DNA of 5,325 nucleotides from Elusimicrobia bacterium HGW-Elusimicrobia-2 (lineage in GTDB: Bacteria; CG03). Where the stretch lies: assembly GCA_002841685.1 (NCBI GenBank), contig PHAM01000090.1, positions 1-5,325 on the forward strand. Direction: 5' to 3'. Below the pieces are notes generated by a model that ran no database searches, had not been told where the DNA came from, and saw nothing but the letters and a program-made list of their open reading frames with translations. The translations under genes and the position numbers were made by a program. Position 1 is the first letter of the stretch; the number at the start of each line of letters is the position of its first letter. Positions 641 through 4,319 of this stretch are shown here, piece after piece.

Positions 641-1306
641 TTATTTGATTATGACCTCTTCCAGAACGACAGACTCCAGCGGCCTGTCGCCGGGGCCAGT
701 CTTCACCGCTTCTATCTTTTTGACCACATCCATTCCCTCAATGACCTCGCCGAATATCGTGTGGTGGTTGTTGAGCCATGGCGTGGGAACAGTCGTTATA
801 AAGAACTGGCTGCCGTTGGTGCCGGGGCCTGAATTGGCCATTGCCAGAATTCCCGGCCTGTCAAAAACAAGGCTCCCGTCGAACTCGTCTTTAAAGCGGT
901 ACCCGGGGCCCCCTGTGCCGTTTCCTAAGGGACATCCGCCCTGTATCATGAAATTCTTTATTATTCTGTGAAATATCAGGCCGTTGTAAAAAGGCCGCTT
1001 GAGCTGCTGGCGGGTCCTCGGGTCGGTAAACATCTTGTCGCCCTTCGCCAGATCGACAAAATTCTCAACAGTGACCGGTGCTTTGTCAGGATAGAGCTTA
1101 ATAACTATTTCTCCGAGCGGCTCGTCCCCGTGGCGGATCTTCATAACAGCCAGCAGTTCTTTCTTTTCAGGTATCTTTTCTTTCACAAGGGTCTCCTCAG
1201 CCGGCGGGGATATTTCGGCAGGATCCGTTGGACTTTCCTGCTTCAGAGCGCCGCAACCGACGATAAAAAACACAACAGCAAAACCAATTTTTGAAATAAT
1301 TTTCAT
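641..1306 (-). CDS. Cyclophilin-type peptidyl-prolyl cis-trans isomerase, lipoprotein
   Basis: Catalyses cis-trans isomerisation of X-Pro bonds, probably as a periplasm-facing lipoprotein. From the ATG at 1306 it has 221 residues: a lysine-poor signal peptide with lipobox I-V-G-C (Cys18), an acidic, Pro/Glu/Lys-rich linker to about residue 50, then a cyclophilin domain to the end. Active-site residues of human cyclophilin A are all recognisable with correct spacing: Arg114 (in FHR), Phe119, Met120, Gln122 (NFMIQGG), Phe169, Trp177 and His182. Gly at position +2 after the lipid Cys argues against inner-membrane retention if the E. coli Lol rule applies. The frame opens further to a TTG at 1315, but GGAGG lies only 1-2 nt before that codon and at good distance from the ATG, so the ATG is chosen. 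It heads a probable two-gene unit with the EVE-like gene. Confidence 0.93.
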
Positions 1307-1315
1307 ATTTTTCAA

Positions 1316-3414: not shown

Positions 3415-3434
3415 TTCCAGATTCACACAAGAAC

Positions 3435-3543
3435 GGCGAAGATATCCGTAGACGGACGCTCAGGTATGAGCTTCGATGCCTATATCGCTTCGGGAACGTG
3501 GTTAAGCCCTCGCTCATATGGCCCGCTCCGGATACCGTCCGCC
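3435..3543. repeat. Long imperfect inverted repeat downstream of the helicase gene
   Basis: Nested complementary blocks face each other: GGCG (3435-3438) with CGCC (3540-3543), TATCCG (3443-3448) with CGGATA (3529-3534), and TATGAGC (3465-3471) with GCTCATA (3512-3518), around a 40-nt loop. Internal gaps are of similar but unequal length. A small TCCG-TAGA-CGGA hairpin (3445-3456) competes with it. No T-run follows, so it is not a standard terminator. It may be a structured RNA 3' end, a decayed small mobile element, or partly chance. The 276-bp gap 3415-3690 holds this element, the promoter and the leader of the next gene, and no convincing longer gene. Confidence 0.35.
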
Positions 3544-3570
3544 GCTCTTGCGCTTATGCTATTCATTAAA

Positions 3571-3587
3571 TAACTTTGTGTAACTTT
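3571..3587 (+). repeat. TAACTTT direct repeat at the -35 region
   Basis: TAACTTT occurs at 3571-3577 and 3581-3587, one helical turn apart (period 10). The second copy forms the -35 element of the ECF-type promoter. The first has no matching -10 and may be a duplicated -35 or an activator site. Confidence 0.4.
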
Positions 3588-3607
3588 CCGATCAGGACAG
3601 GCGTCTA
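3581..3607 (+). promoter_or_regulatory. ECF-sigma-type promoter of the Spy-like gene
   Basis: A -35 TAACTT (3581-3586, with the AAC core at 3582-3584) is followed after 17 nt by CGTCTA (3602-3607), continuing AAAGG. An AAC-type -35 box and a CGTC-type -10 box 16-17 nt apart are the hallmark of extracytoplasmic-function sigma factors. No comparable sigma-70 promoter was found in 3415-3690. Transcription would start near 3613, giving a leader of about 78 nt. Control by envelope stress would suit a Spy/CpxP-like product. No sigma factor gene is in the window. Confidence 0.6.
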
Positions 3608-3630
3608 AAGGTTGAAGGCAAAAGTGGTGA

Positions 3631-3675: not shown

Positions 3676-3681
3676 AGGAGG
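3676..3681 (+). promoter_or_regulatory. Strong ribosome binding site AGGAGG
   Basis: AGGAGG lies 9 nt before the ATG at 3691 and fixes the start of the Spy-like gene. It is the strongest ribosome site in the window and predicts high expression once the gene is transcribed. Confidence 0.85.
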
Positions 3682-3690
3682 TATGTTAAA

Positions 3691-4188
3691 ATGAAAAACT
3701 TAATGAACTGGACGGCGGCTGGAATGATGATGGTGGCGCTGGCGGCTTTTTCGCCGCTTATGGCCGAAACACCGGACAAGAGCGAAATGGCGGAATTCAG
3801 GGAATGGAAACAGAAAAAAACTCAGAACCTGCAGAAACGCGACGAGCGCAGAAAAGCGATGCACGAGAAAAGAATGGAGAGGATGACTAAAGAACTCGGA
3901 CTCAGTGAAAAACAAAAAACTTCTATCTCCGGTATCCTTGAGAATTCGTGGAAAAAAGTCGCCGAAGAAAGAAACTCGTTCACGGACAAAGTGAAAAAAA
4001 TCAGGGAGTCTTCCGACAAGAGCATTGAGAAAGAACTGACCAAAGAACAGATCAAAAAATGGGAAGAACACAAATCCCGGATGATGAAGCAGGCCCGCAA
4101 GATGAGTAAAAAGGGCAAAAAAAATGGGCGGCAAAAAAGGGGACAGCGGAAATATGCGCGGCGGATGTATGAACTGCGAAAGTTATGA
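3691..4188 (+). CDS. Spy/CpxP-like exported protein, probably frameshifted near its 3' end
   Basis: A 165-residue protein as read. Residues 1-25 form a signal peptide (KN start, hydrophobic MMMVALAAF core, LMA cleavage site before Glu26), so the mature protein should be periplasmic. The rest is charged, lysine/glutamate-rich and predicted helical. Two LTxxQ-like motifs, LSEKQ (71-75) and LTKEQ (116-120), are the mark of the Spy/CpxP family of periplasmic chaperone or stress proteins. The last 21 residues (145-165) are abnormally basic and begin exactly at a run of eight A (4117-4124). Reading one base later gives a 35-codon Gly/Cys-rich tail ending at 4231, for a 179-residue product. The gene appears monocistronic, with an ECF-type promoter upstream and a terminator downstream. 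Family assignment rests on signal peptide, composition and the two motifs. Confidence 0.8.
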   Translation: MKNLMNWTAAGMMMVALAAFSPLMAETPDKSEMAEFREWKQKKTQNLQKRDERRKAMHEKRMERMTKELGLSEKQKTSISGILENSWKKVAEERNSFTDKVKKIRESSDKSIEKELTKEQIKKWEEHKSRMMKQARKMSKKGKKNGRQKRGQRKYARRMYELRKL

Positions 4189-4231
4189 CTGTGGCGACGG
4201 TAAAATGAGAGGCGAACACGACGACAAATAG
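4124..4231 (+). other. Hidden +1-frame Cys-rich C-terminal tail of the Spy-like gene
   Basis: Starting in the A8 run, the +1 frame stays open for 35 codons to TAG at 4229-4231, 43 nt beyond the stop of the main frame. It encodes a tail with GGKKGDSGN, then GGCMNCESYDCGDG and a final GEHDDK. It has three cysteines (positions 159, 162 and 167 of the joined protein), one histidine and several aspartates, a plausible metal-binding end. With one A fewer in the run, the upstream MSKKGKK joins MGGKKGDSG smoothly. It could be a real frameshift mutation, an assembly error in a homopolymer, or productive slippage. Confidence 0.55.
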
Positions 4232-4241
4232 TCTCACCCCT

Positions 4242-4319
4242 GGCTTTTCTGATGCGGCCTTATCCTTTCAAGGGAGAGGGCCGCGCTTTTTCCGCACCCG
4301 TAAAACGCCGGCTTTTCTG
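4242..4319. repeat. 10-bp direct repeat flanking the terminator
   Basis: GGCTTTTCTG occurs at 4242-4251 and 4310-4319, bracketing the hairpin and ending just before the stop codon of the converging gene. This may be chance or a trace of a small insertion or duplication. Confidence 0.35.
4254..4291 (+). terminator. Strong intrinsic terminator of the Spy-like gene
   Basis: GCGGCC (4254-4259) pairs with GGCCGC (4279-4284), and the stem continues inward through CCTT/AGGG to a TCA loop, about 13 pairs with one mismatch. It is followed by GC and five T (4287-4291), so it acts on the plus strand. The other side has no U-run, so it should work poorly for the converging minus-strand gene. It lies beyond both the main stop (4188) and the alternative stop (4231). 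Confidence 0.85.

What the first reader, a model, noticed from the sequence alone, without database searches (positions are those of the whole stretch)
4117..4231. A8 run splits a Spy-like gene from a hidden Cys/His-rich tail
At 4117-4124 a run of eight A precedes a switch in protein character. The annotated frame continues as a very basic 21-residue end (NGRQKRGQRK...), typical of out-of-frame reading. The +1 frame gives a Gly-rich tail with three Cys, one His and many Asp/Glu, and stays open past the first stop to 4231, still before the terminator. One A fewer joins both parts into a 179-residue protein. Possible causes are an assembly error, a recent mutation, or transcriptional slippage that makes two products, one with a metal-binding tail and one without. 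If the slippage is real, it would be an unusual control of an envelope-stress protein.
Basis: partly seen in the sequence, partly recalled or inferred. Interest (0 to 1): 0.6.

Follow-up and report, generated by a model that had tools for sequence, protein, structure and literature searches.

The report
Single-base frameshift in Spy-like gene
A run of eight A's throws the last part of a small bacterial envelope-protein gene out of frame, but the closest relative has seven A's and one continuous gene, so this is most likely an ordinary one-base insertion (mutation or assembly error) and not a designed two-product switch.

Summary
In detail: A8 at 4117-4124 separates a 142-codon body from a 37-codon +1-frame tail; the annotated frame ends in 21 unrelated basic residues after the A-run. 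The window is contig C51 of a fragmented draft genome related to the Elusimicrobia. The nearest genome in the genus, G003 (body 95% identical), has A7 there and a single uninterrupted 179-residue gene. Two more distant genus members (G002, G001) also have one open frame with a hydrophilic, Asp/Lys/Gly-rich C-terminus and no A8. The hidden tail is therefore the true ancestral C-terminus, and the split is private to this assembly: a one-base insertion by mutation or by sequencing/assembly error, which cannot be told apart without reads. Programmed slippage is not supported: the run is not conserved, and A8 runs are common in open frames here. A conserved metal-binding tail is not supported either: 3 Cys in the window, 2 in G003, 0 in G002. 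The body is Spy/CpxP-like by two LTxxQ-type motifs only; no family model reaches its cutoff. Upstream lies a genus-conserved ECF-sigma-type promoter-like box, which fits an envelope-stress role.

The parts
3581..3608 (+). Promoter-like box, ECF-sigma type (TAACTTT-N15-GTCTAA); followed closely by conserved GGTTGAA
   Evidence: Conserved in G001, G002 and G003 upstream of the same gene with identical spacing while the surroundings diverge; only exact match in the genome. Function inferred from the known sigma-E/ECF promoter form, not tested.
3676..3681 (+). Ribosome-binding site AGGAGG
   Evidence: Sequence; GGAGG also present in G001-G003.
3691..4116 (+). Conserved body of the Spy/CpxP-like protein (142 codons): hydrophobic N-terminus resembling a signal peptide, two LTxxQ-like motifs (LSEKQ, LTKEQ), predicted long helices
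   Evidence: 95/81/63% identity to G003/G002/G001; helices 30-69, 73-115 and 118-145 in the model of the G003 protein.
4117..4124 (+). Run of eight A; G003 has seven at the same place
4125..4188 (+). Out-of-frame basic end of the annotated ORF (stop TGA 4186-4188); not kept in any relative
   Evidence: negative codon-usage score -6.1.
4118..4231 (+). Ancestral C-terminal tail in the other frame (37 codons plus stop TAG), in frame with the body in G003
   Evidence: codon-usage score +4.7.
4254..4291 (+). Probable intrinsic terminator (GCGGCC ... GGCCGC, then TTTTT)
   Evidence: By eye; near-identical in G003; not flagged by the simple scan.

Best explanation
The gene at 3691-4231 is a short Spy/CpxP-like (LTxxQ-motif), presumably periplasmic, helical protein whose ancestral form is one 179-residue frame. 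In this assembly a one-base length change in a poly-A run puts the last 37 codons out of frame. It arose either by replication slippage in the organism or as a sequencing/assembly error. If the change is real, the cell makes a 165-residue variant with an intact helical body and a different, basic, probably disordered end, which probably works much as before. No dual-product control is involved. Shown: the A8/A7 difference and the in-frame tail in relatives. Inferred: direction of change, functional neutrality, periplasmic location.
For: G003 (body 95% identical) has A7 and one 179-aa frame with the same tail. G002 and G001 also have single frames with hydrophilic tails; the G002 tail still resembles that of G003, ESYDCGDGKMRGE / DSYDHRDYGRGEE. 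No relative keeps the basic end. Codon usage: +4.7 bits for the tail frame, -6.1 for the annotated frame, +32.8 for the body. It is the only frame-breaking homopolymer indel I could see inside an established gene in about 26 kb aligned to G003. The tail is predicted disordered (pLDDT below 50 from 147) and evolves fast (pN 0.08 vs 0.02 in the body). PMC3711429 (section 29) attributes unclustered frameshifts mostly to sequencing error or recent indel, and suggests that those near the 3' end are more likely real indels.
Against: No reads are available, so error and mutation cannot be separated. Only three genus relatives exist in the collections; a second strain of the same species with A8 cannot be excluded. 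The tail codon-usage signal is weak because it is short, and a third frame scores +3.4.
Confidence: 0.93

Rival explanations
1. First form of the best explanation: pure assembly or sequencing error; the organism has A7 and a normal 179-residue gene.
For: The window is a short contig (5.3 kb) of a 94-contig draft genome; the only frame-changing difference is homopolymer length; the tail codons remain well formed up to a proper stop.
Against: No general excess of homopolymer indels in about 26 kb compared with G003; 3'-end frameshifts are argued to be enriched in real indels (PMC3711429).
Confidence: 0.5
2. Second form of the best explanation: real recent insertion, fixed or polymorphic in the population, with the altered end tolerated.
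For: The body is intact and the tail is the most variable, disordered part; poly-A runs are known to be prone to replication slippage (PMC1088944).
Against: No second genome with A8 was found.
Confidence: 0.43
3. Functional transcriptional slippage (or phase variation) at A8 giving two C-termini, one with a Cys-bearing tail.
For: Poly-A runs are the right kind of sequence; a run of nine A in Thermus dnaX does this (PMC1088944). A7 in G003 versus A8 here shows that the length can vary.
Against: The run is not conserved at this length in any relative and is absent in G001. A8 occurs 33 times on the coding strand inside open frames in 192 kb of coding sequence, with a sharp drop only at A9 (3 cases), so A8 seems tolerated; ORFs do not clearly end more often after A8 (7 of 32, against 13-14% for shorter runs). 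The published length at which selection against slippage becomes evident is commonly nine. The Cys are not conserved.
Confidence: 0.04

Closest known systems
Spy/CpxP-like LTXXQ-motif proteins (Pfam PF07813, NCBIfam NF007769)
   Same: Signal-like N-terminus, about 150-180 aa, all-helical and basic, two LTxxQ-like motifs about 45 residues apart; promoter-like box of envelope-stress (ECF) type.
   Different: No Pfam or NCBIfam model reaches its cutoff; fold search was uninformative; variable hydrophilic tail added.
Homopolymer-indel frameshifts near gene 3' ends (singleton class of PMC3711429)
   Same: Private single-base change near the 3' end, validated by in-frame homologues.
   Different: Nothing apparent.
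Programmed transcriptional slippage (Thermus dnaX A9, IS-element genes; PMC1088944)
   Same: Poly-A run upstream of a second open frame.
   Different: Only eight A, not conserved, the nearest relative is single-frame, not a mobile element.

Membership tests
Spy/CpxP (LTXXQ, PF07813) | Match to the family profile above the curated cutoff | tested here: not met
   No PF07813 match for the four genus proteins at E<=1; the G006 homologue scores 21.6 bits against a cutoff of 24.3; NF007769 (Spy) weak, 12.6-16.4 bits against 174.
Spy/CpxP (LTXXQ, PF07813) | Two LTxxQ motifs | tested here: met
   LSEKQ and LTKEQ (T/S variants) in the window protein, kept in form in G003 and G002; G001 has LSAAQ and LTKEQ; G006 has LNENQ and LTPQQ. 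Read by eye.
Spy/CpxP (LTXXQ, PF07813) | Spy-type helical cradle fold | tested here: inconclusive
   Model all helical, mean pLDDT 65.5, pTM 0.31; Foldseek and VIA-align list only weak generic helical matches.
Spy/CpxP (LTXXQ, PF07813) | Periplasmic location (signal peptide) | not tested
   The N-terminus MKNLMNWTAAGMMMVALAAFSPLMAE looks like a signal peptide by eye; no predictor was run.
Programmed transcriptional slippage gene | Slippery run conserved among homologues | tested here: not met
   A8 in the window only; A7 in G003 with a continuous frame; not kept at this position and length in G002/G001.
Programmed transcriptional slippage gene | Two products made from one gene | not testable with these tools
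   Needs RNA or peptide data.
Metal-binding Cys/His tail | Conserved Cys/His ligands | tested here: not met
   Tail Cys: 3 (window), 2 (G003), 0 (G002), 1 in the G001 stretch after the body.

The most novel reading that the evidence does not exclude
A species-specific poly-A length switch (replicative phase variation or transcriptional slippage) that alternates the C-terminus of an envelope-stress protein between an acidic Cys-bearing tail and a short basic tail.
Probability: 0.03. Interest if true: 0.45.

Novelty: already known. Interest (0 to 1): 0.1.

Why it matters
It matters mainly as annotation hygiene: the C-terminus read from this assembly is probably wrong, or a private mutant form, and should not be used to infer a basic tail. 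The conserved promoter-like box suggests that this gene may answer to an ECF sigma factor in this poorly studied lineage.

Tried and rejected
Programmed slippage or frameshifting: rejected for lack of conservation and because A8 is common in open frames. Conserved metal-binding tail: rejected. Ka/Ks of the tail frame against G003: only 8 differences, pS 0.058 and pN 0.08, too few to show constraint; the basic frame gave pS 0.099 and pN 0.115. Fold search for Spy gave nothing specific, Spy not listed; a sequence profile against PDB gave no Spy hit either. Search for more relatives: only two genus genomes, already known, in genome contigs, none in viral contigs, 5 of 16 phylum genomes including the window's own. 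Rfam: no match in the window. A paper search for LTXXQ/CpxP/Spy/metal returned none. A first idea that the weak C36 match was a second copy of the promoter box was wrong: the matching piece does not hold the box.

Full report
What is there. The window is the whole of contig C51 (5,325 bases) of a 1.78 Mb, 94-contig draft genome, about 96% complete. Two genus relatives are in public records as 'Elusimicrobia bacterium CG03_land...' and 'bacterium isolate 01_128', both metagenome-assembled. The run of eight A lies at 4117-4124 exactly as stated. The ORF 3691-4188 has 165 codons, of which the last 21 after the run are basic. The other frame, read from 4118, gives KKMGGKKGDSGNMRGGCMNCESYDCGDGKMRGEHDDK and stops at 4231.

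Homologues settle the frame. A search of 61 genomes with the 142-residue body found it in the three other members of the genus: G003 95%, G002 81% and G001 63% identical, and a distant one in the family, G006, 34%. G003 has seven A at the same place and one 179-residue frame ending KKMSGKKGDRGNMRGSGMDCESYDCGDGKMRGEQDDK, clearly the same tail. G002 (171 aa) and G001 (170 aa) are also single-frame; the G002 tail still resembles it (MRG...DSYDHRDYGRGEE). None keeps the basic end. Codon usage learned from 57,217 codons of the same genome favours the tail frame (+4.7 bits) over the annotated frame (-6.1), with the body at +32.8; the stretch is short and the third frame scores +3.4, so this is supporting evidence only.

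Mutation or error. Over the two blocks of the window aligned to G003 (about 5 kb), the A8/A7 difference is the only indel that breaks a gene body; the other single-base indel (1313) lies at the TTG start of the neighbouring peptidyl-prolyl isomerase ORF, where an ATG just downstream may be the real start. Another roughly 21 kb of G000-G003 alignment showed no further clear homopolymer frameshift within a gene (judged by ORF context, not by annotation). So this is a rare, local event. Without reads I cannot say whether it is a draft-assembly error or a genuine recent insertion. Antonov et al. (PMC3711429) make both points: homologue-validated single frameshifts are expected to be sequencing errors in many cases, but those close to the 3' end are more likely real indels.

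Slippage. The run is not conserved at eight in any relative and is absent in G001. In 202 kb of this genome, coding-strand A runs inside open frames number 266, 98, 33 and 3 for lengths 6, 7, 8 and 9; G003 gives 314, 135, 48 and 3. A8 thus follows the usual roughly threefold decline and only A9 drops sharply, which fits the published observation that selection against slippage-prone runs commonly becomes evident at nine (PMC1088944). Frames do not clearly stop soon after A8 more often than after shorter runs (7 of 32 within 75 nt, against 13-14% for A5-A7). Low-level slippage at A8 is possible and might produce some full-length protein, but nothing marks it as a control device.

Metal-binding tail. 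The tail has three Cys in the window, two in G003 and none in G002; the G001 stretch after the body has one. Tail divergence between the window and G003 is mostly non-synonymous (7 of 8 changes; pN 0.08 against 0.02 in the body) and the tail is predicted disordered (pLDDT below 50 from residue 147). It is a fast-evolving hydrophilic end, not a conserved ligand site.

What the protein is. Two LTxxQ-like motifs (LSEKQ and LTKEQ) in a short, basic, all-helical protein with a signal-like N-terminus resemble Spy/CpxP. Membership is not shown: no Pfam or NCBIfam model reaches its cutoff, the best being PF07813 for the distant G006 homologue at 21.6 bits against 24.3, and fold and structure-sequence comparison were uninformative. 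Upstream, TAACTTT-N15-GTCTAA at 3581-3608 is conserved with identical spacing in all four genus members while the neighbouring spacer is not, and it is the only exact match in the genome. This is the form of an ECF/sigma-E promoter (own knowledge) and independently supports an envelope-stress role (inference).

Verdict. The exciting explanation, slippage giving two products with and without a metal-binding tail, is not supported. This is an ordinary single-base frameshift near the 3' end of a gene.

Noticed in passing
window 3434-3558: About 105-125 bp interspersed repeat with complementary ends (GGTATCCG... / ...CGGATACC) lying just upstream of the promoter box; 21 matches in this genome including itself, 16 in G003, 1 in G002 and 4 in G001, but absent from the orthologous spacer in G003, so it looks like a mobile, MITE-like element. 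No Rfam match; folding z-score -1.6.
   Followed up: partly
window 3581-3615: ECF-sigma-type promoter-like box TAACTTT-N15-GTCTAA followed by GGTTGAA, conserved in all four genus members and unique in the genome; which sigma factor reads it was not examined.
   Followed up: partly
L005, about 20-60 bases upstream of the gene start at 1501 (G002): Repeated palindromic unit CCTGCCTACCGGCAGGCAGG inserted between promoter box and ribosome-binding site in G002 only.
   Followed up: no
window 1301-1315: Single-base indel versus G003 at the TTG start of the peptidyl-prolyl isomerase ORF; the true start is probably the ATG just inside.
   Followed up: no
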